From the NCBI RefSeq assembly GCF_000299395.1, contig NC_018656.1:1302001-1366000 (forward strand): DNA of 64,000 nucleotides. Direction: 5' to 3'. The translations under genes were made by a program, and so were the position numbers. The number at the start of each line of letters is the position of its first letter. The first letter of the stretch is position 1. Below the pieces are notes generated by a model that had not been told where the DNA came from, did no database searches, and saw only the letters and a program-made list of their open reading frames with translations. The DNA is from Candidatus Nitrosopumilus sediminis (lineage in GTDB: Archaea > Thermoproteota > Nitrososphaeria > Nitrososphaerales > Nitrosopumilaceae). Below, piece by piece: positions 19,882-32,202 of this stretch.

Positions 19882-19913
19882 CAATTATCTAAAAATTTTT
19901 AAAAATTTAACAG

Positions 19914-19955
19914 AGCCTTGAACGGGGTACGAACCCGCGACCTAACGCTTACGAG
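19914..19955 (-). pseudogene. Displaced 3' part of tRNA-Thr(CGT)
   Basis: On the minus strand this reads anticodon-loop CTCGTAA, the stem GCGTT, variable loop, T arm GCGGG-TTCGTAC-CCCGT, then TCAAGGC and discriminator T. No matching 5' half lies upstream on the minus strand. It is the chromosomal tRNA end displaced by integration; the intact gene is now at 32129-32202. Confidence 0.85.
19936..19955. repeat. Left attachment core (direct repeat)
   Basis: CGCGACCTAACGCTTACGAG, identical to 32151-32170 and mismatched on both sides. On the minus strand it spans the anticodon loop to the start of the T stem of tRNA-Thr. It lies inside the open frame of the integrase C-terminal part. Confidence 0.9.
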
Positions 19956-20009
19956 TGGCTCTTTTCATTTCATGAAAATGGCAGTGGCTCCTCTTCGAGG
20001 GACACTCGC

Positions 20010-20807
20010 GTGTTCTATACCCTAATGGCTGAGGCTGTCAAGGATTTGAATTGGGAGGATTATAGGGAATGGCTATTCAACAACAAAAGCCAACTTAATG
20101 CAAAATACACATTCAAGGATTCAAAAAAATATCATCACCTTGCATTCAGTGATGAACTAGTATCAATGAAACCCTCAAGAAAGAGGCAGGACATTCTAAA
20201 AGGAATTTCAAACATTACAAGGTATCTGGATATCAAAAAAGACACTGACTTTCACGAGTTGTGGCTCAAGTGGCTAAAGAAAAAAGAAATCAGATGGAGA
20301 ATGAATCCAAAGACCGACACGTATCTTTTGGCTAATCAGATTAGAATGGAGGATGTTTTGAAAAATATTAGAGGCCTCCCAGAAAAATACAAGATATTTG
20401 CCACATTTGTTTTGGTTTCAGGATTAAGAACTAGTGAAGCAATTGAGGCATTCAACAATCATGATAAAATTTGTCGTGAAGGAGTAATGGAATTATTCTG
20501 GGACAGAGGAACAAAGAAGGCAAATGCAGTATATTGTCATCCTATCTTACATGATAAAATGAAATACAAAACTAGTGCCTCAAGAGTAACTAAAAACCTC
20601 CATTCCAAGTATTTGGGATGTGAGGTAAGATATCTCAGAAAATTAAACTATACTTTTAATGCTACTAAGATAGACCCTCTCCTAGCAGAATTTATGCAAG
20701 GTAGAAGAGGTAATGTTTCCCAAAGACATTATTTTCTACCTATGATGAGCAATCATAGAAGAAAATGGAAATCAGTGTGGTTAAAGGTTCTAAAAGACCT
20801 TGTTTAG
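20010..20807 (+). CDS. SSV-type tyrosine integrase, C-terminal part int(C)
   Basis: Catalytic part of the element's recombinase. Visible motifs: LVSGLRTSEAIEAF (first Arg), a TKKANAVY strand (Lys), VRYLRKLN (second Arg box) and SQRHYFLP with the likely nucleophilic Tyr. The track start is GTG at 20010, but the frame is open upstream through the attachment core to 19911 (RPNAYE is encoded by the core). In the excised circle it would continue in phase from int(N) at 31925, giving about 365 residues. In the integrated state it lacks its N-terminus. Confidence 0.88.
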   Translation: MFYTLMAEAVKDLNWEDYREWLFNNKSQLNAKYTFKDSKKYHHLAFSDELVSMKPSRKRQDILKGISNITRYLDIKKDTDFHELWLKWLKKKEIRWRMNPKTDTYLLANQIRMEDVLKNIRGLPEKYKIFATFVLVSGLRTSEAIEAFNNHDKICREGVMELFWDRGTKKANAVYCHPILHDKMKYKTSASRVTKNLHSKYLGCEVRYLRKLNYTFNATKIDPLLAEFMQGRRGNVSQRHYFLPMMSNHRRKWKSVWLKVLKDLV

Positions 20808-20948
20808 ATTTGAAGTAATTTTCTGGACAATCGTTCAATAGGGGTTATAGACATGACACAAAACATCTGTTTAGAAATTTTAAAAAAATTACATAACTGA
20901 ATAAATGCATACATTCATATTAGGTATTCACGTATATTATTAGTAATT

Positions 20949-22712
20949 TTGAATACTATTTCTACAGAGCAAAAATATATTTGTAAAAAATGTCCTTCTA
21001 ACAATTGTGATGATTGTGGGCCTTGGGAAGATACGAATTCTGAAACTTTTAAAAGAATAAAACAAATACACAAAGATCATCCAGGTTGGCAACAAGGAGA
21101 TTTAGAATCTGATTCTTTTGATTCTGCAATTGATTATGTATCAAAAAGCGTAACTGATGCAGAAAAAATTGCAAATAAAAAAAATATTCAACGAGAAAAA
21201 GAAATCGGTTCTCCAATAAAGCAAATTGAACACTATCTTAATTCAATTGTAAAAGATGATAAAAAATTGGTAAAAAAATTGTTGCGGGTTAGTCTTTCAG
21301 CATATACCAGAGATCCATTAAATCTAGGAATCATGGCACCAACATCAGAAGGGAAAACATATGCTACAGTACAAGTAACAAATCTCTTTCCTAAAGATGA
21401 TGTAATATTTGTTGGAAGAATGTCACCTACTGCTTTGATTCATCAAAAAGGAATTCTTGTAGATAAGAATGGAGTACAGGTTGACTATAGAATTAGAAAG
21501 ATTGATGAAGAAATTAAAAATAATCCAGTAAAAAAAGGGGAATTAAAAAAGGAAAAAGATGAAATTCTCAAAGGAGCTAAAAACCTAGTTGATCTTACAG
21601 GAAAAATCCTAGTTTTTGTAGAGCCCCCAGACATCAAATTATGGGATATTATCAAACCAATCTTATCTCATGACAAAAATGAATTAGAGTTTAGAACCAC
21701 ACAATCTGATGGTTCTCTGATAGTCAAAGAAACTATAATCAGGGGGTTTCCAGCCGTGATTTTCTGTTCTGCCAAGAATGAGAAAAAGGATAGAATTTGG
21801 GATGAAATTGAGACTAGATTTGATATTAGTAGCCCCAACACATCAGTTGAAAAATACAAACAGGCAAATCGGTTTACTGCATTAAAAATGGGCACACCAT
21901 CACTTGCCAAAGGAATGATTTCAAATGTAGAAGATGAAAAGTTTGCCAGATATCATATTCGTAGAATTAAGGATAGTATGATAAAATTAACTAAAAATAA
22001 CAAAAATCCTGTTTGGAATTCATTTAATGGAATTATTGGGGAAATTTTTCCAAGTAATGATGGCATATCAATGAGAAATTTGCAGAGACTCATGTCATAC
22101 GCAAATGTTGAATCGTTGATTAATTCAGATAGAAATCCCAAAATTCAGTTTAAGAGTGGAGACGAATATGAGCAGATTGTTGTAACTACAATTGATGATA
22201 TTGATTCTGTTGTAGACATTATTGGTGATGTTAGTGAAATCCCCCCAGATAAAATCAATTTTTTTAATGATGTATTTGTTCCAGCTTTGAAAGAAACAGT
22301 AGATGAATGGGTGACAACCGATGTTTTATCCGAAAAATACATGCAAGTATATCACAAAGATACAACTCCAAAAAAGATTCTAGAGACATATGTGAAGCCA
22401 TTGGATGAGGATTATGGAATTCTAGAATCAAAAATCAATCCAGATAATAAAAAACAGTATTTGTACAGGGTTTCGATCAAGCCAAATGTAAATTCGTATA
22501 GCTATATTCCAGAGGCAATAATCGAAGAATCGAAGAATCATCCCTCATTCGTAAAAGAAGGAATAGAAGAATTAGAAGAATTTTCGAATGAAGAGTTAGA
22601 ATTTGATAGTGTGCTTGATAAAGAAGGGGGTCCTCTATCAAAAGATAAACTACAAGAAATTATAACAGAAAGAGAAATTCAATCGAAAGTTTTTGAAAAA
22701 ACAGAAGAATAA
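20949..22712 (+). CDS. P-loop ATPase, putative replication helicase of the element
   Basis: Protein of 587 residues. An N-terminal four-Cys site (Cys12, 15, 20, 23) is followed by a Walker A loop APTSEGKT (130-137) and a Walker B-like ILVFVEPPD (220-228). The GRMSPTALIHQKG segment and the PILSHD region after Walker B resemble primase-associated helicases of plasmids and viruses. The C-terminal part looks like wHTH plus an acidic tail. TTG start at 20949. Role in replicating the element is inferred from position next to int and absence of any other replication gene. Confidence 0.6.
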   Translation: MNTISTEQKYICKKCPSNNCDDCGPWEDTNSETFKRIKQIHKDHPGWQQGDLESDSFDSAIDYVSKSVTDAEKIANKKNIQREKEIGSPIKQIEHYLNSIVKDDKKLVKKLLRVSLSAYTRDPLNLGIMAPTSEGKTYATVQVTNLFPKDDVIFVGRMSPTALIHQKGILVDKNGVQVDYRIRKIDEEIKNNPVKKGELKKEKDEILKGAKNLVDLTGKILVFVEPPDIKLWDIIKPILSHDKNELEFRTTQSDGSLIVKETIIRGFPAVIFCSAKNEKKDRIWDEIETRFDISSPNTSVEKYKQANRFTALKMGTPSLAKGMISNVEDEKFARYHIRRIKDSMIKLTKNNKNPVWNSFNGIIGEIFPSNDGISMRNLQRLMSYANVESLINSDRNPKIQFKSGDEYEQIVVTTIDDIDSVVDIIGDVSEIPPDKINFFNDVFVPALKETVDEWVTTDVLSEKYMQVYHKDTTPKKILETYVKPLDEDYGILESKINPDNKKQYLYRVSIKPNVNSYSYIPEAIIEESKNHPSFVKEGIEELEEFSNEELEFDSVLDKEGGPLSKDKLQEIITEREIQSKVFEKTEE

Positions 22713-22889
22713 CCTCATTCCTGACTAGACATATTCGATTAGTCGATAAGACATTTTCGAATCCATTATTGTCACAGATTAGTATACTTTGTTCCTTAAT
22801 TGAACATGAAAAACTAAGGATTTACACAAAAAATGAATGGCAGAAATATAATGCGTATGGCCAGATTTGAGATTTATAATTCTCTGATT
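22713..22889. other. Convergent intergenic region with weak inverted repeats
   Basis: Lies between the 3' ends of the ATPase and the ribbon-helix-helix gene. Short pairs GACTA/TAGTC and TCCTTA/TAAGGA could serve as transcript ends. No open frame of interest. Confidence 0.3.
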
Positions 22890-24131
22890 TTACAGGTTTC
22901 CTTTAGAAATACCCACAACAGTGTAACTAGGCACATTTTGTTCTATTTTTAGGCATAAAATTCCCAATTCAGACATTCTTCGCAATGTTGCAGCAATTTG
23001 CATATCTGATGATTTTTTTGCAAGCCATGGAACAATTTTTGTTTCTTCATCATCTTCCATTTCATCTTTGTATTTAATTTCAAAATTTTCTAATGAATCT
23101 TTGTCGTATAGATTAGCCAAGTAGATTCTTTTTTGCTCTTCAAGAATATCTTGAGCTTCTCCTGCAGTCAACACAGTTCCAGATTCAAGAGAAAGTATAG
23201 ATTGTACAATTTTTTCTTCTAAAGGGAAAAGAGGTAAAACATTTTCTAAAATGAAATCAACCTCCTCTTTAGAAAAAATATTTTCTACAGTTTTTTGAAT
23301 TGTATCAGATTGTATGTTATCAATAACAGGATTTTGTAATGAAGCAAATTTTCTTCCATTACTACTCAATGTAATTTTTTTAGAATCTTCTGAAACTAAA
23401 AGTAATCCCATTTCAAAACAAGCTCCGGTAAACACTTTTTTGTTATCTTTTTTACCGAATTTTCCTAAGAATTGATCAGCAAATCTTTTTCTGCCAGAAT
23501 TATATCTAGCAATCAACCAATCTTCTTTATCTTGTTTACGTTTTATTTTTTTCAATGAACGTTTGCCATGTCTTTGAAGAAGTTTTTCTTTTGATACTGG
23601 GAATCCGACTGCCAGATTTAGTTCATTATTTTTTACATGAACATGTTGAAGTGTTTCACCAATTGGAATTGCAAAGTCTGAAATATCATCTTTAAACTGT
23701 TCCAAATCAATCCATTTCGAATCTCCTTGGGAAATTTGTCGTAATAATTCAAAAACGATAACTTTTACAGGAAAAAATCTATTTTGAAAAACCCATATCA
23801 AACCTGCAGAAGATGGCCCATATAGAACTCCCGGTGGAGATATAGGTAATTTACCATCAATGCTGACATCTATTTGTTCAAAAATTCTGTTGAGTTTTTT
23901 TGAAACTTGTTCGAAATCAATTTTTTCTAATTTTTTTGTAACTGATTCATCAAGATTAATCTCAGAATCTATGAGCTCGGTTGAACGTCTGTTCCCCTGA
24001 GACAAATATTCTTCCAGTTCATTGTTGATTGCCATTCTAATAAAATCATGTTCGTTTTCAAAATGGCCATCCTCAATGAGTTTTTTGATTTTTTGATGAA
24101 CGTTTGATTCAAGGTTCAATCTGACAAGCAT
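22890..24131 (-). CDS. Ribbon-helix-helix DNA-binding protein with a large C-terminal region
   Basis: The N-terminal 45 residues (MLVRLNLESNVHQKIKKLIE, then EHDFIRMAINNELEEYL) match a CopG-type ribbon-helix-helix domain. The remaining 370 residues have no recognised family; a basic KRSLKKIKRKQDKEDW stretch and a C-terminal wHTH-like segment suggest further nucleic-acid contact. It is divergent from the PIN-led operon, and two palindromes in the shared promoter region are candidate operators. A regulator, or a giant antitoxin for the PIN protein, are both possible. Confidence 0.65.
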   Translation of the reverse strand: MLVRLNLESNVHQKIKKLIEDGHFENEHDFIRMAINNELEEYLSQGNRRSTELIDSEINLDESVTKKLEKIDFEQVSKKLNRIFEQIDVSIDGKLPISPPGVLYGPSSAGLIWVFQNRFFPVKVIVFELLRQISQGDSKWIDLEQFKDDISDFAIPIGETLQHVHVKNNELNLAVGFPVSKEKLLQRHGKRSLKKIKRKQDKEDWLIARYNSGRKRFADQFLGKFGKKDNKKVFTGACFEMGLLLVSEDSKKITLSSNGRKFASLQNPVIDNIQSDTIQKTVENIFSKEEVDFILENVLPLFPLEEKIVQSILSLESGTVLTAGEAQDILEEQKRIYLANLYDKDSLENFEIKYKDEMEDDEETKIVPWLAKKSSDMQIAATLRRMSELGILCLKIEQNVPSYTVVGISKGNL

Positions 24132-24192
24132 TTACAATCATTCTGTATTTGATATAACTAATAAACTGTAATAAAGCGATCAGAATAAGTGG

Positions 24193-24205
24193 TTTATTCA
24201 ATAAA
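24193..24205. promoter_or_regulatory. Palindromic operator-like site 1
   Basis: TTTATTCAATAAA, a perfect 6+1+6 palindrome in the region between the divergent RHH and PIN genes. It shares its TTTATT-N-AATAAA core with site 2, with centres 45 bases apart, and lies just upstream of the TATA box at 24214. Confidence 0.6.
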
Positions 24206-24213
24206 ACGGTGGG

Positions 24214-24220
24214 TATAAAT
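24214..24220 (+). promoter_or_regulatory. TATA box of the PIN-led operon
   Basis: TATAAAT, flanked by the two palindromes. Expected transcription start is about 24240-24245, inside site 2, so binding there would block initiation. Confidence 0.55.
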
Positions 24221-24234
24221 AATAGTATGTATAT

Positions 24235-24253
24235 CACTTTATTGAATAAAGTG
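24235..24253. promoter_or_regulatory. Palindromic operator-like site 2
   Basis: CACTTTATTGAATAAAGTG, a perfect 9+1+9 palindrome over the predicted transcription start and 6 bases before the chosen PIN start codon. The small symmetric form is right for a ribbon-helix-helix repressor. Confidence 0.6.
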
Positions 24254-24259
24254 TTACAA

Positions 24260-24691
24260 ATGAACAAACAAACTGATAAAAACATAGGATTGATTCCAGA
24301 TACAAATTGGATCATCAATATTGTTGAGAATCAGGGTCCACTAAGCAGAACTATCAACAAATTCCGTAAATCAAAATTAAAAATCATTATTCCAAAATTT
24401 GTCTTACATGAAACAAAAAAGATCAGAGGATATTCAGAGTTAGAGACAATTAACAAATTACAGAGTTGCCTACCTGGAAAGATCAATGTTGTAACAATCA
24501 ATCAGGACGTTATGGAATCTGCAAAAGAATTAGAAGAGAAATACGCTAGACTCCATTTTCCAGATTCAATCATTCTTGCTTATGGACGAATGTGTGCATA
24601 TACTATTTTGAGTTATGATCATGGATTGTTAGATTCAGCAATTAAAGAAGGGGTCCAAACTTTTACTCCAAAAAAAGGAGGGTTGGGATAA
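24260..24691 (+). CDS. PIN-domain ribonuclease (VapC-like)
   Basis: 143 residues from the ATG at 24260. Predicted acidic metal residues: Asp14 (IPDTNW), Glu in LHETKK, Asp in FPDSIILA and Asp in LSYDHGLL, the full PIN quartet. The longer GTG frame from 24209 overlaps the TATA box and operator, so it is unlikely to be translated. First gene of a tightly coupled operon running to 29135. Could be a toxin of a toxin-antitoxin pair with the divergent RHH protein, or a defence nuclease. Confidence 0.82.
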   Translation: MNKQTDKNIGLIPDTNWIINIVENQGPLSRTINKFRKSKLKIIIPKFVLHETKKIRGYSELETINKLQSCLPGKINVVTINQDVMESAKELEEKYARLHFPDSIILAYGRMCAYTILSYDHGLLDSAIKEGVQTFTPKKGGLG

Positions 24692-25266
24692 TGCCTCCAT
24701 ATTATTTTGACATTGAAACAACCGGATTGGATACTCAAAATGATCAAATAATCACAATTCAGTATCAAAAAATCGGTTTGGCATCTGGAAGAGTAGAAGG
24801 ACCATTAATCATTTTAAAATCCTGGAAAGATCCTAAAGGAGAGAAGGGAATAATTGAAAAGATCATTCCGTTAATCATGTCATCAAACCCTTTTGCATTT
24901 GTTCCAATTGGAAATAATCTAAATTTTGAATTCAATTTTCTATCAAATAAAATCAATCAGTATAAAGATTTAGAAATTAATCCAGTCTATTTTCATAATC
25001 GACCTCATATCGACCTAAAGCCAATAATGGTATTACTCAATGGTGGAAGATTCAAAGGGTATCATCAAATTCTCAACAAGGCCAATTCAGGTGCAATGGT
25101 ACCAGAATGGTACAGAAACAATGAATTTGAAAAGATCATAGAATATATTTTAGATGAAACATTATGTTTTACATCATTTTACACAAAACTAAATCATTTG
25201 ATGTTCAATGAGGAACTAAAACAAATTACTTTCAAACCAAACAAGAGGATTGATGATTTTGTCTAA
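24691..25266 (+). CDS. DEDD-type 3'-5' exonuclease (RNase H fold)
   Basis: 191 residues beginning MPPYYFDIETTGLD; Asp7 and Glu9 form the Exo I motif. GNNLNFEFNFL provides Exo II. HIDLKPIMVLLN and a later FKGYHQIL carry further conserved features. This is the DnaQ/predicted-exonuclease superfamily. Its ATG overlaps the PIN stop (TAATG). Substrate, DNA or RNA, cannot be told. Confidence 0.75.
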   Translation: MPPYYFDIETTGLDTQNDQIITIQYQKIGLASGRVEGPLIILKSWKDPKGEKGIIEKIIPLIMSSNPFAFVPIGNNLNFEFNFLSNKINQYKDLEINPVYFHNRPHIDLKPIMVLLNGGRFKGYHQILNKANSGAMVPEWYRNNEFEKIIEYILDETLCFTSFYTKLNHLMFNEELKQITFKPNKRIDDFV

Positions 25267-25411
25267 ACAGGACTATAGTTACATCAAAAAGAAGAATATT
25301 TTGAGAATTCCTTTTTCACAAATGCGTGAAATTATCAAATCTGAGGCTAAAATTGAGCAAATTATAGCAAAAAATGCTGCAAAATACTCAAGGAGGGATT
25401 ATTATGAATAA
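25253..25411 (+). CDS. Small basic protein of the defence operon, 52 aa
   Basis: ATG at 25253, inside the 3' end of the exonuclease gene (14-base overlap), opens 52 residues. The end overlaps the start of the next gene, so it is coupled on both sides. The segment ILRIPFSQMREIIKSEAK faintly recalls the first helix of an archaeal histone, but the rest of the fold is absent. Function unknown. Confidence 0.55.
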   Translation: MILSKQDYSYIKKKNILRIPFSQMREIIKSEAKIEQIIAKNAAKYSRRDYYE

Positions 25412-25937
25412 CAAAAGTCACAGGTTTACTTTTCATCGTAATATCATCAAGGGAAAGCTAGCTGAAACTATTGCCAAACAAGATTACAAAGAACATGGAT
25501 TTGAAATTAAAGAAACAGGAATAGGGAGTGATTTCATAGTTAGAAAGAAAAGAAATGGGACAACCTATGAAGAATATGTAGATGTAAAATCAGGAAATGC
25601 AAAACTAACAAAAAAACAAAAGATCACTCGTGGTTTACTCAAAAAAAACAATATCAGTTATTCTATTTACAGGGTAACAGATGAACATTTAAAATTTCAA
25701 ATTTGCAATAATCCTGAATTACAGCAACTATGTTTTCAGATGGGCTTTGACATATCTCAGTTTGCAGGAATTTTTCTAATCGAAGATCCTACTAATTGTC
25801 CTAATTGCAAATTAGGAGCAACAGGTATGCAAAATATCTTGACACGATTTGGACTCAGAAACATGGGTGACGGAACAGTTAGAGTTCAGTCATGGTGTAG
25901 AAATTGCAGGGATTTTTCCAGGAGAGGCATAAAATGA
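25404..25937 (+). CDS. PD-(D/E)XK-like nuclease with a C-terminal zinc ribbon
   Basis: 177 residues from ATG 25404, which has a strong AGGAGG eight bases upstream, unusual in this window. The N-terminal half shows GSDFIVRKK then YEEYVDVKSG, a D...(E)xVK pattern typical of restriction or Holliday-junction-like nucleases. The C-terminus has CPNC and CRNC pairs. The longer frame from 25374 would lack that ribosome site. Nuclease activity is inferred. Confidence 0.6.
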   Translation: MNNKSHRFTFHRNIIKGKLAETIAKQDYKEHGFEIKETGIGSDFIVRKKRNGTTYEEYVDVKSGNAKLTKKQKITRGLLKKNNISYSIYRVTDEHLKFQICNNPELQQLCFQMGFDISQFAGIFLIEDPTNCPNCKLGATGMQNILTRFGLRNMGDGTVRVQSWCRNCRDFSRRGIK

Positions 25938-26092
25938 GATGCAAGTTGTGTAGTGTACCACATAGAAATACTTCAAGGTATCAGTCTTGGGTTGAACATC
26001 AAGTCTGTCGTACATGTTATTTTATTTTGGATGTTTTTTCATGGAATTCTAACAACCTGAAAGACTATTGGGAGATAAACCATGCACAATGA
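25934..26092 (+). CDS. Small zinc-ribbon protein, 52 aa
   Basis: ATG at 25934 overlaps the preceding stop (ATGA). MRCKLCSVPH and VCRTCYF give two Cys pairs about 20 residues apart. The frame extends upstream to 25904, but the ATGA overlap supports this start. Part of the coupled operon; function unknown. Confidence 0.6.
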   Translation: MRCKLCSVPHRNTSRYQSWVEHQVCRTCYFILDVFSWNSNNLKDYWEINHAQ

Positions 26093-26348
26093 TTTGATTC
26101 CTAATATTTCTAGGCATTTCCTTTATTCCATTTTGGAACACAATCATGAAAACAAGATGGCAATAATAGAAAATGTGGCAGAGTCAAAATCTAGCGAAAT
26201 ATGCGAATTTTTGTTCTCTTTTGAAAATTGTATTGCAACATATTTGTTACAACTGGAAGTAGGATTGGAAGGTTACGACAGTATTAGAATCCAAACACTG
26301 AATGAGCTAAAAAACCCTCACGAAGAGAACTGGGAGAGGTTGAATTGA
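26082..26348 (+). CDS. Hypothetical protein of the defence operon, 88 aa
   Basis: Predicted helical, acidic, no recognised family. It overlaps the zinc-ribbon gene by 11 bases and the next small frame by 4, consistent with coupled translation. Confidence 0.6.
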   Translation: MHNDLIPNISRHFLYSILEHNHENKMAIIENVAESKSSEICEFLFSFENCIATYLLQLEVGLEGYDSIRIQTLNELKNPHEENWERLN

Positions 26349-26437
26349 GTAAAATTTCCCATATTAGATATGCATATGAAGATCATATTTTTACATATAG
26401 GATTTATGAGTTAAATGTTGAAGGAATTGAATTATGA
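26345..26437 (+). CDS. Possible microprotein, 30 aa
   Basis: TTG at 26345 overlaps the previous stop (TTGA) and its own stop overlaps the next ATG (ATGA). The peptide MSKISHIRYAYEDHIFTYRI and ten more residues look like two strands. Double coupling makes translation plausible. Confidence 0.45.
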   Translation: MSKISHIRYAYEDHIFTYRIYELNVEGIEL

Positions 26438-28464
26438 CTGGTCCTAAAGGATTTGATCCGGATTCTAGAAGATCCATGGTGATGAATGTCACACAGCTGG
26501 TAAGACAACTACTTGATGGTTATGAACAAAGAGAAGAAGCAAAAAGTCATTGGTTACAAAAAGATGGGATTCAAAATTGTTGGGATGCAAGAAAAGATGC
26601 CAAAAAAGGTAACAAATGGAAATGTGTAATAGAACTAATTGAAGAAAATGGAAAAAGTTTTCTGACAATCACGGATTATGGAACATGGGGACTAACAGGA
26701 AAAAGACTATCTCAAAAAGAATTAGAAACAGAAGATCAACCAGTTCATGAGAGATGGTCTAGATTTGAAAATCTTGCTTTTGCAAATGATGATATCCCAG
26801 ATAAAGAACTGTTAGGATCAAGAGGCAGAGGAAAATTTATTTTTATAGGAATTTCGTTGTCTAATCAAACATTTTATGAAACTTTACGTGATGATGGAGT
26901 GTACAGACTTGGAAATAGAATACTAGAAAAAACAGATTCTCCAACAGTTGCAGAAGAAGGAGAGAAGGCAAGAGAGATTCTAAAACAAAACACAGGCGGG
27001 TTATTAAAACCACTCAATCATGTTGGTACAAGAATAATTATTCCTGATCCTGATCCAGAAGTTGTAAAGGATTTCAAAGATGGCCACATGGAAGAATTCA
27101 TTGGAGATACATGGTGGGAAATTATAGAAAAATTCAATGCAGAAATAATTTTAAAAGATGGAAAAAATGAAAGAAAGGTAAATTCATTCTTTTCAGACAT
27201 ACCAAAAAAACCTAAAAATAAAAATCAAAAAATTCTCATCAAAGAGAACATCATGATCCACCCCTTGGATCTACGCATAAAGAAAATTTTCTTGTTTTAT
27301 GACAAAGAAAGAACATTTGATGAGAGATACAGAGGAATAGCTGTCCAAAGAGCTGGAATGAACATATGTAGACTTTCATTAGAGGAATTAGGACCAAATC
27401 TCAGCACTCATATCACAGGATATGTTACTTGTGAGAGAAATTTTGATCATGAGATGAGGAGGTGTGAAGGACAAGAACATTATGATTTCATGTGGAACAG
27501 AATTCCTGCAAGATATCTCAAAGCTTTACTGATTCAGGAATATAGAAAATTTGCAGAGGAACAATTGGGATGGAGGGCACTTAAGGCACAAAAAGCACAG
27601 CAAGGACAAAAGAACGCTGAAAGCCGTGCTCTTAGAGCAGCAAACAGAGTTGCAAAGGATATTGGTTTTGGAAGAGGGGGAACCAAGGTAAAAAAGCCAC
27701 AACCACCCGGACCTCCTAGACCTAAACCTCACAAAGAAATCCAGATTCAATTGGACAATCCTGTTTTCCCAGATAGCGACACCATGAGAGTCAATTATGA
27801 TCAATCATTAAAGAGTATCAAAGCAAGGATCAGCAATAATTCCAAACACGATATTCAAGTAAAAGCAAGAATTGTAATCAAGTCAGTAGAAAGAGGGGAC
27901 GTTATAGAACATATTTACAAATCAGATATTGATGTTAAATCAAATACAACATCGGAGTATTTTGGAAAAGATGTTTTAAAAATTACAAAACAAGATTACT
28001 CTCCAGGTCACTACAAAATTTCAGCAGATATTGTCCTATTAACACCATTTGAAAAACTACGAAAGGGATACAAACTTGATAAATCAGAAATCTCATTTTA
28101 TGTTGAACAAGATCCTCCAGAAGGTGGAGTTTTTGAAGAATTCGTACGAGTTGTAGATTTTGATTATCTTCCAGAACCTAAAGACAAGCTCAGATGTGTT
28201 CATGTTATGGGTTCCAAACCAAATACCTACAAACTTGAATACAACGGTAATCATAATGATTGTGAGGAATATGGGAAAGAGGAAGATACTCTTTCACAGT
28301 ATTTGTACAGGCTATCACTTCCAGAATTGTGCTCTATAGATATTGAAAATGAGTGGAAGTTATTGTTCAAAGATTCTGACATTATCGAACCCATACGTGT
28401 AATTGAAAGAACAAATGAAATAATCGGGGAATTCACTACAAGCACATGGATGGCTAAAATCTAA
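26434..28464 (+). CDS. GHKL (Hsp90/MutL/MORC-type) ATPase, restriction/defence-associated
   Basis: 676 residues. ATP-binding motifs: KDGIQNCWDARKD (Asn48, Asp51), ITDYGTWGL (Asp81, Gly83, Gly86) and GSRGRGKFIFIG (about 128-139). The usual catalytic Glu four before the Asn is Asp44 here. A basic Ala/Lys helix and a Pro-rich linker (about 380-440) lead to a beta-sandwich-like C-terminal region. Families of MutL/MORC-like ATPases are known in bacterial restriction-modification operons with C5 methylases and Vsr; both occur 1-2 kb away. Coupled to the partner at 28464. Confidence 0.8.
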   Translation: MTGPKGFDPDSRRSMVMNVTQLVRQLLDGYEQREEAKSHWLQKDGIQNCWDARKDAKKGNKWKCVIELIEENGKSFLTITDYGTWGLTGKRLSQKELETEDQPVHERWSRFENLAFANDDIPDKELLGSRGRGKFIFIGISLSNQTFYETLRDDGVYRLGNRILEKTDSPTVAEEGEKAREILKQNTGGLLKPLNHVGTRIIIPDPDPEVVKDFKDGHMEEFIGDTWWEIIEKFNAEIILKDGKNERKVNSFFSDIPKKPKNKNQKILIKENIMIHPLDLRIKKIFLFYDKERTFDERYRGIAVQRAGMNICRLSLEELGPNLSTHITGYVTCERNFDHEMRRCEGQEHYDFMWNRIPARYLKALLIQEYRKFAEEQLGWRALKAQKAQQGQKNAESRALRAANRVAKDIGFGRGGTKVKKPQPPGPPRPKPHKEIQIQLDNPVFPDSDTMRVNYDQSLKSIKARISNNSKHDIQVKARIVIKSVERGDVIEHIYKSDIDVKSNTTSEYFGKDVLKITKQDYSPGHYKISADIVLLTPFEKLRKGYKLDKSEISFYVEQDPPEGGVFEEFVRVVDFDYLPEPKDKLRCVHVMGSKPNTYKLEYNGNHNDCEEYGKEEDTLSQYLYRLSLPELCSIDIENEWKLLFKDSDIIEPIRVIERTNEIIGEFTTSTWMAKI

Positions 28465-29135
28465 TGGCAGTGTTAATTAGAGAACAGGTTAACGGGAAAG
28501 AAAAGAAAATCTACAAAACTAATTTGGAAAAAGTAACAACGTCTATTGCAAAGAAGGCAGATGAACTAGATGATAAAATTAAGAAAAAAATTGAACAGAT
28601 TGAAAAAGAAGCTGAATCAAATGGTCTAATAGAACTAAAATCTAAAAAAGGAAATGTTGTTAAACTTTATCATTTTGTTGGAAATGAACTAAAACCTTTT
28701 GTAGATAACCTAAAACTTTCCAAAGGAGATAAACCATATATCTGGCAGGCAATCAACTATCACTCAAAATTTCTAAAGATTAGTGAATCAGCATCAGGCA
28801 GACTGAAGAGAGATCCTGTAACCAGTACTTGGACATATTGTTATAATTTAGGGGAATACGATACAGCACAAGTACAGGAATATGATTGGACACAGTGGGT
28901 GGAAATTTTTGATTCGTCCATTACGACAAAAGATAAAAGAGTTGTCCCTTGGTTAATTAAAAAGAAAAAAGAATCATTTTCAGATGGTTCATTACAGAAT
29001 TGGTTTCGTGCTCTGATGAGAGAGATCAGAAATCATCTAAAAGACTACGACACAACTGTTTTGTCAGATAAAGAATTAGAAGAAGAATTAAAAATAGCAT
29101 TTGAGAAATTTTCACAAACATACACAGAAAATTAA
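28464..29135 (+). CDS. Partner protein of the GHKL ATPase, 223 aa
   Basis: No family recognised. The N-terminal 60 residues are Lys/Glu-rich and helical, likely coiled coil; the middle is aromatic-rich (YIWQAINYHSKF, DWTQWVEIF) and the C-terminus again helical and charged. It begins at the ATPase stop, so the two are probably made together. Last gene of the operon. Confidence 0.65.
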   Translation: MAVLIREQVNGKEKKIYKTNLEKVTTSIAKKADELDDKIKKKIEQIEKEAESNGLIELKSKKGNVVKLYHFVGNELKPFVDNLKLSKGDKPYIWQAINYHSKFLKISESASGRLKRDPVTSTWTYCYNLGEYDTAQVQEYDWTQWVEIFDSSITTKDKRVVPWLIKKKKESFSDGSLQNWFRALMREIRNHLKDYDTTVLSDKELEEELKIAFEKFSQTYTEN

Positions 29136-29139
29136 AAAA

Positions 29140-29436
29140 TTAATCTAGTTCAGGATAAGGATTTGAATCAGGAGCTTGGAGAACATATGAGTTATTCTTT
29201 TTCTTTGTAACAATAATTCTATCACCCTCAAGGAACCTATACTTTTCATACAGCTGTCCTGTCATTATATCGTCCTTGTGATTTACTTTTAGTTCGTAGG
29301 TCTTGTTGTCAAGCATAAGCTTAAACACTACACCAGATTCAGGAAAAAAATCCCTATCAGCTTTTTGTATGTGCCAGTAACGATGTCGGGCTTCCGGTTT
29401 CTTTAGAGGTCTTGAATATTCATCCAACAGCATCAC
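29140..29436 (-). CDS. Small beta-rich protein coupled to the methyltransferase, 98 aa
   Basis: The start overlaps the end of the methyltransferase gene by 4 bases. The sequence is strand-rich, with RYWHIQKADRDFFPESG and a closing LEGDRIIVTKKKNNSYVL resembling the EGD turn of B3/EcoRII-N-like DNA-binding folds. That similarity is weak. A DNA-recognition partner is a reasonable guess from context. Confidence 0.55.
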   Translation of the reverse strand: MMLLDEYSRPLKKPEARHRYWHIQKADRDFFPESGVVFKLMLDNKTYELKVNHKDDIMTGQLYEKYRFLEGDRIIVTKKKNNSYVLQAPDSNPYPELD

Positions 29437-30422
29437 TTTCTACAAATCATTGGAGTCAAAAGTTTTTTCTGTACGGGAAGGTTTCGAATTATTTCTTTTG
29501 CAATCACCTTAACGACTGGAACAACTACAGAGTTTCCAAACTGTCTGTATGCATGATTGTCGGATTCATGTTTCTGGAAGTTCTTTGGAAATCCCATCAA
29601 TTTTGCACACTCGTTAGGAGTAAGCCTTCTTGGATTTCTTGTTTGTCCACGGGATATGAGAATCTGAGCACCGTCCTTGTAGTATCTTGCACTCAAGGTA
29701 TTTGCAACTTTTTTCTTATCTGCAATTGTATATCCGAACCCGTTTCCTTTCTTTCGATGTCTTTCCAGATGACGCTTAAGTGCATTCCAAGTTCCGTCAG
29801 TAAGGACATATTTCTTGTCCACTTTCTTTTCAAGAATGTCAGACAGTTTGATATTCTTGTTTGGAATTTTTGGAAATTTGAAATTACGTGGCGTGATAAA
29901 GCCAGCAATAAACAATCTCTCACGATGTTGTGGAACCACATTGACTGCATCAAGCACTTCATAATGTACATCGTATCCAAGTTCATCCTCCAGAACTCGC
30001 AAAATAGTTTTCAGAGTATTGCCTTTGTCATGACTTTTTAAGTTTTTTACATTCTCCAGCAAGAAGGCACTAGGTTTTTTTGCTTTAAGTATTCGTGCAA
30101 TATCAAAGAACAAAGTTCCTTGGGTCAGATCCTTAAATCCGACAGGATGTCCGTGAAATTTTTTTACTGGAATGCCAGCTAAAGAGAAAGGCTGGCACGG
30201 AAATCCTGCCACCAGAACATCATGATCAGGAATGTCATTTTCATCAATCTTAGTAATATCACCAAATGGAACTTCCCCAAAGTTTTTTTCGTATGTCTCT
30301 TGTGCATATTTATTCCATTCTGAAGAGAATACACATTTGCCACCTGCACCCTCAAAGGCTATTCTCATACCTCCAATTCCCGCAAAAAGATCTATGAATT
30401 TAAAATTAGTATTTTTTTCCAA
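29433..30422 (-). CDS. DNA (cytosine-5) methyltransferase
   Basis: Modification enzyme of 329 residues with all major motifs: FIDLFAGIGGMR (I), GFPCQPFS with nucleophile Cys76 (IV), LLENVKNL (VI), QHRERLF (VIII) and QFGNSVVVPV (X). The target-recognition region before motif IX is short. It is divergent from vsr, a classic Dcm-Vsr pairing. Recognition site cannot be read from sequence. Confidence 0.95.
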   Translation of the reverse strand: MEKNTNFKFIDLFAGIGGMRIAFEGAGGKCVFSSEWNKYAQETYEKNFGEVPFGDITKIDENDIPDHDVLVAGFPCQPFSLAGIPVKKFHGHPVGFKDLTQGTLFFDIARILKAKKPSAFLLENVKNLKSHDKGNTLKTILRVLEDELGYDVHYEVLDAVNVVPQHRERLFIAGFITPRNFKFPKIPNKNIKLSDILEKKVDKKYVLTDGTWNALKRHLERHRKKGNGFGYTIADKKKVANTLSARYYKDGAQILISRGQTRNPRRLTPNECAKLMGFPKNFQKHESDNHAYRQFGNSVVVPVVKVIAKEIIRNLPVQKKLLTPMICRK

Positions 30423-30528
30423 TCTAACAACAAAAGGTTCAGTTCATTTTATTTAATTATTGACATGTATTGATCCACAATAAGGTCAAATATGAAAAAT
30501 CTTTACGCATGTCTGTTGATGAAAAATA

Positions 30529-30933
30529 ATGACCGATATTTTTACTCCTGAAAAAAGATCGTGGGTGATGTCCAGGATTAGAGGGACCAACACGAAAATT
30601 GATCTCAAAATGAAAAAGATCCTTACGGACACAGGATACAGACATGAAATGTATCCAAAGATGTATGGGAATCCAGACTTTGTAATAAGACGAAAGAAAA
30701 TCATCATATATTGTGACGGGGATTTTTGGCATGGATATAGATACAGTAAAAAAAAGAAACTACCAAAAAAATTCTGGCGAGAGAAGATTGAAAACAACAT
30801 GAGAAGAGATAGAAAATACTCTAGAAGGCTAAGAAAAGAGGGATGGTCAGTCTTACGCTTTTGGGAGCATGACATAGAGAAGAAGACAGAGAAATGCAAA
30901 AGGAGAATCATTTCCAAATACAAATCAAAGTAA
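30529..30933 (+). CDS. vsr: Very short patch repair (Vsr) endonuclease
   Basis: 134 residues. The N-terminus RSWVMSRIRGTNTKID and the active site NPDFVIRRKK (Asp50), IYCDGDFWHG and the zinc-supporting region WSVLRFWEHD match Vsr. Vsr nicks T:G mismatches made when 5-methylcytosine deaminates, so it fits beside the C5 methyltransferase. In defence operons it may also act as a restriction nuclease. Confidence 0.92.
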   Translation: MTDIFTPEKRSWVMSRIRGTNTKIDLKMKKILTDTGYRHEMYPKMYGNPDFVIRRKKIIIYCDGDFWHGYRYSKKKKLPKKFWREKIENNMRRDRKYSRRLRKEGWSVLRFWEHDIEKKTEKCKRRIISKYKSK

Positions 30934-31210
30934 AAATGAAAAACATTTTCACAGTGTATAGGATTACACGCATATCATGTTAGATGAATATGCAGAAAAT
31001 CTGTGATTTGTAAAATATACCGTAACCTAATGTAAAACTAATACGTACATCATGTTTAGATAAATTGAAATGAAAATATCAGATACTCACATCAAACCCA
31101 CGCTACCGCCAGTGTATTCCTAACGGAAACTGTCAGTCGAGGGAATGTGATATCTGACAGTATACATACGTATTACTAAGATAAAAAGAATTCTAAAGAA
31201 TTAGCCTTAA
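30934..31210. other. Non-coding region of the element with an inverted repeat
   Basis: No gene. A perfect 8-bp inverted repeat, ACTGTCAG (31129-31136) and CTGACAGT (31154-31161), encloses 17 bases. It is the longest gene-free stretch of the element, so it could hold a replication origin or transcript ends, but no direct-repeat set is evident. Confidence 0.4.
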
Positions 31211-31795
31211 TCAAATTAACAGATCAGATTTCATTTTGTTCTCCAATATATTTTCAATATCGATTTTTATGGTACCGGGGGGAGAAAAACCCAATTTGCA
31301 AAAAAAAGCCAGTGCGTCAGCTAGCTGAAAAGATTTGCCATTATTTTTAGCAAATTTAAATTTCCAATTTTGTAGAGCGGGAATCATATCAGAATCACAT
31401 TGGAAAACTAAATCATTGAAAGTTACATCAAATTTTGATAAGAACGGTTCGATCCTAGGACGGATTTCCTGCAGTAGTAAATGATCAAAATAAGCATAAA
31501 TTGCACCTATAGAAGCAAACCTTTCTTTTGTTTTATGATTTTCATGAATGTCATGAACAATTCTATTTTTTCCTGCAATAACAGATAAGGCAAGAATACG
31601 GTCGGAACTAAAGTCTAAATTTTTTTTAATTTTATTACGTTTTGCTTTTGAAATATTTACCATGTGAAGGTTCTTTCTACCAAGGTTGTTATGAGTTTCA
31701 TTAATAGTGTCATCGGCACCGAAAACAATAGCTATAACTTTATGTTGACCTCTATCATCATCAAACCCAGAAACATCAGTACCAACAAGAACCAT
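31211..31795 (-). CDS. DUF3800-like RNase H-fold protein
   Basis: 194 residues starting MVLVGTDVSGFDDDRGQ, with a central LVFQCDSDM and a late FQLADALAFF. The D-x-S-G start, mid-chain Asp and Q-L-A-D helix follow the DUF3800 layout, a presumed RNase H-like nuclease family common on mobile DNA. No catalytic proof. Located next to int(N) at the right end of the element. Confidence 0.55.
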   Translation of the reverse strand: MVLVGTDVSGFDDDRGQHKVIAIVFGADDTINETHNNLGRKNLHMVNISKAKRNKIKKNLDFSSDRILALSVIAGKNRIVHDIHENHKTKERFASIGAIYAYFDHLLLQEIRPRIEPFLSKFDVTFNDLVFQCDSDMIPALQNWKFKFAKNNGKSFQLADALAFFCKLGFSPPGTIKIDIENILENKMKSDLLI

Positions 31796-31924
31796 GAGAT
31801 ATGAAAATATGAGCTATTTAAAAAGAAATGTTATTGTAAAACATCAACTCCCAACAGAATCAATTTTTAAAAAATATATCCAAAACAAGGAAAGTTTTAA
31901 GATCTAGTAGAAGTAAATAATGTA

Positions 31925-32191
31925 ATGTTTAGCAAAACAGAACGAAGTTATTTATCAGGAAATTACCAACCAAGCATTACACACAGAAGGGTACTCAATC
32001 ATAGAATTAAAAACAAAATCAAAGAATATCATATACTAGAACTTCCTATCATACAAAGCATTACTGAATTTAGTAACATAATTACTGAATTTACTAACAA
32101 TGTAAACAATGATTCATCAAAAACAGGAAGCCTTGGGCGAGATTCGATCTCGCGACCTAACGCTTACGAGGCGTTCGCTCTACCAGGCTGA
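31925..32191 (+). CDS. SSV-type tyrosine integrase, N-terminal part int(N)
   Basis: 88 codons; the first 82 (to SRPNAYE) are element sequence up to the end of the attachment core, and AFALPG comes from the tRNA gene read antisense. A helical, basic N-terminus with HRRVLNHRIKNKIKEY fits an arm-binding domain. Core offset within the codon equals that in int(C), so excision would restore one 365-residue gene. Confidence 0.85.
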   Translation: MFSKTERSYLSGNYQPSITHRRVLNHRIKNKIKEYHILELPIIQSITEFSNIITEFTNNVNNDSSKTGSLGRDSISRPNAYEAFALPG

Positions 32192-32202
32192 GCTACCAAG
32201 GC
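32129..32202 (-). tRNA. tRNA-Thr (CGT), integration target
   Basis: 74-nt cloverleaf: acceptor GCCTTGG/CCAAGGC, D stem GCTC/GAGC, anticodon stem AACGC/GCGTT with loop CTCGTAA (anticodon CGT), T stem GCGAG/CTCGC and discriminator T. The T loop reads ATCGAAT, with A at position 54 in place of the usual T. The 3' part was supplied by the element. Confidence 0.93.
32151..32170. repeat. Right attachment core (direct repeat)
   Basis: Exact copy of 19936-19955, inside tRNA-Thr from the T stem to the anticodon loop, and inside int(N). Confidence 0.9.

What the first reader, a model, noticed from the sequence alone, without database searches (positions are those of the whole stretch)
19911..32202. 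A 12.2-kb element whose integrase gene is split by its own insertion into tRNA-Thr
Seen: an exact 20-bp repeat (19936-19955, 32151-32170); a complete tRNA-Thr(CGT) at one end and its displaced 3' part at the other; int(N) reading into the right repeat and int(C) open through the left repeat. The repeat begins at the same codon position in both frames and both encode RPNAYE, so recombination would restore one 365-residue gene. Known: SSV1-type archaeal integrases are partitioned this way. Inference: integrated, possibly immobile unless int(N)/int(C) are re-joined.
Basis: partly seen in the sequence, partly recalled or inferred. Interest (0 to 1): 0.92.

Follow-up and report, generated by a model that had tools for sequence, protein, structure and literature searches.

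The report
Archaeal element that splits its integrase
A 12-kb mobile DNA element sits in a threonine tRNA gene of a marine ammonia-oxidizing archaeon; inserting there cut its own integrase gene in two, a strategy already known from archaeal viruses, and it also gave the host a new end for that tRNA, which related elements seem to have done repeatedly across the genus.

Summary
The 20-bp repeat is exact and is the only repeated 20-mer in the window. Joining the ends restores one 365-aa reading frame, an SSV1-Int-like tyrosine recombinase (PF16795, E=4e-11; int(C) model matches SSV1 Int best). At least 70 of 94 congeneric genomes have the tRNA-Thr(CGT) locus uninterrupted. Relatives show which end is native: the left tRNA fragment is the old host 3' part, and the complete tRNA at the right carries the element's T-arm and acceptor strand. 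The true att is therefore about 42 bp at 83% identity, not 20 bp.

The same int(C)...cargo...int(N) design occurs in four other complete elements (11.6-13.6 kb, 36-43-bp repeats) in tRNA-Thr, -Cys and -Gly genes. Their cargo is unrelated, so the split integrase is a swappable module. It is a new member of a known kind (suicidal integrases; a thaumarchaeal case was reported in 2019).

New here: among 18 congeners the 3' half of this tRNA varies 63 times more per site than its 5' half, while tRNA-Thr(TGT) shows no such excess. Repeated 3'-half replacement by such elements is my inference. The genome is probably N. sediminis AR2, so the element may already be catalogued.

The parts
19914..19955 (-). 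Left att: displaced native 3' part of tRNA-Thr(CGT) (T-arm, acceptor 3' strand), followed in frame by int(C)
   Evidence: Identical 3' half in the vacant tRNA of close congeners L007-L011, L013, L014, L016; sequence
19936..19955 (+). 20-bp exact repeat copy (left), the invariant core of the att
   Evidence: unique repeated 20-mer
19956..20807 (+). int(C): C-terminal 283 codons plus stop of the integrase, containing the catalytic domain (R240, R307xxR310, Y341 in the joined numbering)
   Evidence: PF16795 E=4e-11; model best matches SSV1 Int 3vcf/3uxu/4dks; alignment
20949..22712 (+). 587-aa protein with a P-loop-like motif (APTSEGKT); possible replication ATPase, not identified
   Evidence: No Pfam, NCBIfam or PHROG family; homologues in a few congeners; structure model too poor to use
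22890..24131 (-). 413-aa protein, N-terminus weakly like ribbon-helix-helix regulators
   Evidence: RHH_8 E=0.0011, below cut-off
24209..24691 (+). PIN-domain protein
   Evidence: PF01850 E=1.7e-5
24691..25266 (+). RNase H-like / 3'-5' exonuclease-like protein
   Evidence: PF13482 E=4.9e-6
25374..25937 (+). Putative VRR-NUC/resolvase-like nuclease
   Evidence: Sub-threshold PF08774/PF10107
26434..28464 (+). 676-aa protein of unknown family
   Evidence: No family hit
28464..29135 (+). 223-aa protein directly following the 676-aa gene
   Evidence: Coordinates; no confident family
29433..30422 (-). DNA cytosine-5 methyltransferase
   Evidence: PF00145 E=4e-95; TIGR00675
30529..30933 (+). Vsr-type DNA mismatch/nicking endonuclease, partner of the methyltransferase
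   Evidence: PF03852 E=1.6e-19; TIGR00632 above cut-off
31211..31795 (-). 194-aa protein of unknown family
31925..32170 (+). int(N): first 82 codons of the integrase, ending in the att (reads on to a stop at 32189-32191)
   Evidence: homologous int(N) next to the tRNA in relatives
32129..32170 (-). Right att: element-derived 3' part of the complete tRNA (T-stem GCGAG/CTCGC, T-loop ATCGAAT, acceptor CCAAGGC); last 14 codons of int(N) on the plus strand
   Evidence: Differs from every vacant congener; found nowhere else in 250 family genomes
32129..32202 (-). Complete, hybrid tRNA-Thr(CGT): host 5' half plus element 3' half

Best explanation
This is an integrated 12.2-kb mobile element (a 'cryptic integrated element') carrying a suicidal, type I integrase. 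The circular form holds attP inside a single 365-codon integrase gene; attP copies the 3' half of tRNA-Thr(CGT) on the opposite strand. Recombination between attP and the tRNA gene, somewhere in the anticodon-side 20 bp, opened the circle. It left int(C) at the left end, int(N) at the right end, a whole tRNA built from the host's 5' half and the element's 3' half, and the old host 3' half stranded beside int(C). Shown: empty sites, origin of each half, restored ORF, homology and fold, and repeated occurrence. Inferred: that the joined protein is active, the exact crossover point, and that excision needs an intact related integrase in trans or recombination between the repeats.
For: Repeat, tRNA and joined ORF. 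Contiguous unoccupied site in at least 70 of 94 other genomes of the genus, 94-95% identical in the closest. Native 3' half = left copy. PF16795 'Archaeal phage integrase' at 43.5 bits versus a cut-off of 27. Foldseek best matches SSV1 Int catalytic domain 3vcf/3uxu/4dks, probability 1.00, TM by target 0.58-0.68. Four other complete elements of identical design, 11.6-13.6 kb, 36-43-bp exact tRNA repeats: G134 Thr(CGT), G179 Cys(GCA), G230 Gly(TCC), G181 Gly(TCC). Cargo shares nothing detectable with theirs. Published precedent: NitEve-E3 in Nitrososphaera evergladensis and archaeal suicidal integrases generally (PMC6563490; PMC8371274).
Against: No free circular form or intact joined gene was found in viral contigs, phage or plasmid collections, so the joined gene is inferred. 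Foldseek E-values are modest (7e-3) on a model of mean pLDDT 75. The exact repeat is short (20 bp) compared with sister elements (36-43 bp).
Confidence: 0.94

Rival explanations
1. Int(N) and Int(C) work as two separate polypeptides after integration, so the element is not silenced by the split and can excise itself at a low rate.
For: Truncated Int(C) of SSV1 and SSV2 retains weak recombination in vitro, and TKV4 Int(C) appears to be expressed (PMC8371274). Int(C) in the window has an in-frame GTG at 20010. In the tRNA-Cys members the att contains an in-frame TGA between int(N) and int(C), so even a circular copy would encode two pieces.
Against: Int(N) and Int(C) of SSV2 do not associate in solution and Int(N) carries multimerisation. 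Thr and Gly(TCC) members keep the joined frame open, as expected if one protein is needed.
Confidence: 0.15
2. The element is a dead remnant: two fossil integrase pieces around a genomic island with no remaining mobility.
For: Relatives contain decayed pieces: orphan int(N) at tRNA-Thr(GGT) in five genomes and a broken copy in G076 contig 18. No circular form found.
Against: Both int pieces are open through the repeats and rejoin in frame; the cargo ORFs are full length; the other Thr(CGT)-group int(C) copies are 68-72% identical over about 256-294 aa without stops.
Confidence: 0.2
3. The variability of the tRNA-Thr(CGT) 3' half reflects ordinary drift or gene conversion rather than replacement by integrating elements.
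For: Only two congeners with a non-standard A54 T-loop still hold a recognisable split integrase at this site (G000, G019); two others (G065, G066) are vacant. Some elements at the site carry no recognisable integrase.
Against: Variation stops at the att boundary (5' half 0.0023, 3' half 0.146 differences per site) and is absent from tRNA-Thr(TGT) of the same genomes. In 15 genomes whose anticodon stem, and so the att core, differs, the 3' half is nearly invariant. G066 contigs branch exactly at the tRNA 3' end with a 141-nt overlap, as if occupied and vacant cells coexist.
Confidence: 0.3

Closest known systems
SSV1/SSV2 (Fuselloviridae) integrase system of Sulfolobales
   Same: attP inside int; integration into the 3' part of a tRNA gene splits int into int(N) and int(C); catalytic domain fold
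   Different: No capsid or other fusellovirus gene found; different host phylum; box II is RxxR instead of KxxR in the Nitrosopumilaceae copies, though KxxR occurs in sister copies L249 and L250
NitEve-E3 of Nitrososphaera evergladensis (cryptic integrated element)
   Same: Thaumarchaeal element with a split SSV1-like integrase and no viral genes (PMC6563490)
   Different: Encodes MCM, which was not recognised in this element; distant homologues in Nitrososphaeraceae fall on a long, separate branch. The two sequences were not compared directly.
pTN3 and pT26-2 suicidal-integrase plasmids of Thermococcales
   Same: Split integrase as compact integration module exchanged between unrelated cargo; many tRNA targets (PMC8371274)
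   Different: pTN3 uses the tRNA 5' half; the window uses the 3' half, but the sister Gly(CCC) clade found here also uses the 5' half
NitAR2-E1/E2, integrated elements listed for N. sediminis AR2
   Same: The genome is probably AR2: casposon Cas1 gene within a few kb of EF-2 and similar size (size from memory); NitAR2-E2 is said to carry a Cch-like helicase, as the 587-aa protein might be
   Different: Coordinates are in supplementary tables that could not be read; the main text names only NitEve-E3 as split

Membership tests
Suicidal (type I) archaeal integrase elements | att site lies inside the integrase gene and integration splits it | tested here: met
   Both pieces open through the repeats in the same phase; join gives 365 aa; empty sites in relatives
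Suicidal (type I) archaeal integrase elements | Product is a tyrosine recombinase with C-terminal catalytic domain in int(C) | tested here: met
   PF16795 over residues 215-346; invariant R240, R310, Y341; fold match to SSV1 Int and archaeal Xer
Suicidal (type I) archaeal integrase elements | Catalytic activity (integration by the intact enzyme, excision only with an intact enzyme) | not testable with these tools
   Needs bench work
SSV1-type integrase subfamily sensu stricto | Signature R...KxxR...Y | tested here: not met
   RxxR in all aligned Nitrosopumilaceae copies, KxxR in sister copies L249 and L250; so not filed in this subfamily
Fuselloviridae (SSV viruses) | Virion protein genes | tested here: not met
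   No capsid or structural gene among the cargo in Pfam, PHROGs, NCBIfam
Thaumarchaeal cryptic integrated elements (Krupovic 2019) | Integrase and site-specific integration without viral or conjugation hallmark genes | tested here: met
   class described in PMC6563490

The most novel reading that the evidence does not exclude
Suicidal-integrase elements repeatedly overwrite the 3' half of one essential host tRNA gene. tRNA-Thr(CGT) of Nitrosopumilus is then a mosaic whose T-arm, including a non-standard A54 T-loop, is inherited from mobile elements and is shaped on its other strand by the integrase reading frame; vacant sites with element-type T-arms are scars of past residents.
Probability: 0.5. 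Interest if true: 0.68.

Novelty: new member of a known kind. Interest (0 to 1): 0.5.

Why it matters
It turns one reported case of a split integrase in Thaumarchaeota into a family seen in 17 of 250 genomes of the host family, with at least five complete elements whose cargo has almost nothing else in common, including a methyltransferase/Vsr pair in this one. It offers a natural experiment on how mobile elements rewrite a host tRNA: the tRNA 3' half is very variable exactly up to the recombination site. It also gives testable sequences for the open question of how such elements leave after destroying their own integrase.

Tried and rejected
Chance repeat or assembly artefact: rejected. A tRNA duplication without insertion: rejected, because relatives have one copy and no insert. 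Looking for a free circular form or intact joined gene: none in viral contigs with one protein or a 7-sequence alignment, nor in phage or plasmid records. Finding a host with the element's exact T-arm: none among 250 family genomes, so the donor is unknown. Sequence search of the PDB gave nothing meaningful; only the fold search linked it to SSV1 Int. The 587-aa protein could not be identified: no family, and a single-sequence model with pLDDT 35, which I did not use further. Other insertions at the same tRNA in G016, G034 and G071 (about 1-4 kb) carry no recognisable integrase. The genome's name could not be confirmed from papers.

Full report
WHAT WAS CHECKED. The two copies of CGCGACCTAACGCTTACGAG are at 19936-19955 and 32151-32170 and are identical over exactly 20 bp. 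No other 20-mer occurs twice in the 64-kb window; about 0.018 such pairs are expected at this base composition. ARAGORN and Rfam find one complete tRNA-Thr(CGT) at 32129-32202 on the minus strand. The left copy belongs to a 42-bp stretch, 19914-19955, that matches the 3' part of that tRNA at 35 of 42 positions (read). Int(N) runs from the ATG at 31925 into the right copy; int(C) is open through the left copy to 20807. Cutting anywhere in the repeat gives the same 365-aa protein.

WHAT THE JOINED PROTEIN IS. It matches Pfam PF16795, Archaeal phage integrase, with 43.5 bits against a cut-off of 27. An AlphaFold model of int(C) built with relatives (mean pLDDT 75) has as its best PDB matches the SSV1 integrase catalytic domain (3vcf, 3uxu, 4dks) and archaeal Xer (4a8e), all with probability 1.00. 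R240, R307, R310 and Y341 are invariant in an alignment of seven relatives. The box II motif is RxxR, where SSV1-type enzymes have KxxR (signature from PMC8371274); two sister sequences do have KxxR.

PROOF OF INSERTION. A query made of the two flanks joined at the repeat was searched in 95 genomes of the genus. At least 70 of the 94 others hold it as one uninterrupted match, at 94-95% identity in the closest, while the window's own genome has it in two pieces. In the closest vacant relatives the tRNA 3' half reads CGCGGGTTCGTACCCCGTTCAAGGC, the same as the LEFT copy in the window. So the left piece is the displaced host sequence, and the complete tRNA at the right is a hybrid: host 5' half, element 3' half (T-stem GCGAG/CTCGC, T-loop ATCGAAT, acceptor CCAAGGC). 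This is the expected outcome of crossover on the anticodon side. It explains why the exact repeat is only 20 bp here but 36-43 bp in sister elements.

A FAMILY OF SUCH ELEMENTS. A search of 250 genomes of the host family found relatives of the integrase in 17 genomes of 7 genera. Four complete elements have the same order int(C)-cargo-int(N)-tRNA: G134 (L065) 13.2 kb in tRNA-Thr(CGT), 43-bp repeat; G179 (L066) 11.6 kb in tRNA-Cys, 42 bp; G230 (L067) 13.4 kb in tRNA-Gly(TCC), 43 bp; G181 (L068) 13.6 kb in tRNA-Gly(TCC), 36 bp. Apart from the two integrase pieces, no gene of the window element has a detectable relative in the other four; only L066 and L068 share two small genes. In a tree of int(C) the targets follow clades (Thr-CGT, Cys, Gly-CCC), although several deep branches are weakly supported. 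Distant relatives occur through the class, including the family f3 of the same order, which I take to be Nitrososphaeraceae. [quoted passage not shown]

THE tRNA SIGNAL. In 18 congeneric genomes where both genes could be read, tRNA-Thr(CGT) differs by 0.0023 per site in positions 1-48 and by 0.146 in positions 49-74; for tRNA-Thr(TGT) the values are 0.0157 and 0.0043. The 18 genomes were those whose tRNA-Thr(TGT) was most similar to the query, so its low overall divergence is partly by selection; the contrast within tRNA-Thr(CGT) is not affected by that. Fourteen genomes with identical tRNA-Thr(TGT) carry eight different tRNA-Thr(CGT) 3' halves. Over 64 genomes the values are 0.012 and 0.163. 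Fifteen other genomes have a different anticodon stem, so lack the att core, and their 3' halves are almost uniform. A T-loop beginning with A occurs in four congeners: the window genome and G019, both with a split integrase there, and G065 and G066, both vacant. In G066 two contigs overlap by exactly 141 nt and one starts at the tRNA 3' end, which is what a de Bruijn assembler produces when the same tRNA has two different neighbours, for example occupied and vacant cells. My reading, an inference, is that elements of this kind repeatedly replace this half of the gene.

CARGO. A cytosine-5 methyltransferase (PF00145) and a Vsr endonuclease, a PIN protein, an RNase H-like exonuclease, a possible resolvase-like nuclease, and several proteins of no known family, among them a 587-aa P-loop-like protein and a 676-aa protein. 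No virion or conjugation gene was recognised.

HOW IT PROBABLY WORKS. A circle carrying one intact int gene integrates into tRNA-Thr(CGT). The act of integrating separates the catalytic part from the N-terminal part, which favours staying integrated. In characterised relatives excision can occur when a related element brings an intact integrase (PMC8371274). The many relatives in the same hosts make that plausible here; it is not shown.

WHAT IS KNOWN ALREADY. Suicidal integrases are an established archaeal class (PMC8371274) and a split SSV1-like integrase has been reported in Nitrososphaera evergladensis (NitEve-E3, PMC6563490). The window's genome, one contig of 1,690,905 bp, has a cas1 gene a few kilobases from an EF-2 gene, as described for the casposon of N. 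sediminis AR2, so it is probably that strain, and this element may be one of its listed elements; the tables were not readable. The finding is therefore a well-supported new member of a known kind. The family-wide anatomy and the tRNA 3'-half variability are the parts I did not find described in the papers I could search.

Noticed in passing
L066 (G179) and L071 (G187), att upstream of int(C): In the tRNA-Cys members the att carries an in-frame TGA between int(N) and int(C), so even the circular gene would be interrupted; two-polypeptide action, readthrough or frameshift would be needed.
   Followed up: partly
[quoted passage not shown]
   Followed up: partly
L078, L083, L084, L085, L086: int(N)-like ORFs lie next to tRNA-Thr(GGT) in five genomes of four genera with no matching int(C) found in those genomes (G019's int(C) is of the Gly-CCC type): orphan int(N) or very diverged partners.
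   Followed up: partly
L258 (G217) 1708-2502 and L259 (G230) 1546-2361: A stand-alone int(C)-like gene between what looks like an aquaporin gene and tRNA-Arg(GCG), in the same place in two genomes, without int(N): possible domestication.
   Followed up: no
L087, L088, L089 (G016, G034, G071): Insertions of about 1-4 kb at the same tRNA-Thr(CGT) site without a recognisable integrase; the site is an integration hotspot.
   Followed up: partly
L091/L090 (G066): Contigs overlap by exactly 141 nt starting at the tRNA 3' end, suggesting a mixed population of occupied and vacant sites.
   Followed up: partly
G000:C1:674000-693500 (L262): Cas1 gene (337 aa) and a 594-aa polymerase-like ORF close to an EF-2 gene: a casposon, as described for N. 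sediminis AR2.
   Followed up: partly
L079 (G076 contig 18) 4479-4724: Broken int(N)-att remnant with no int(C), in a genome whose tRNA-Thr(CGT) site is vacant.
   Followed up: partly
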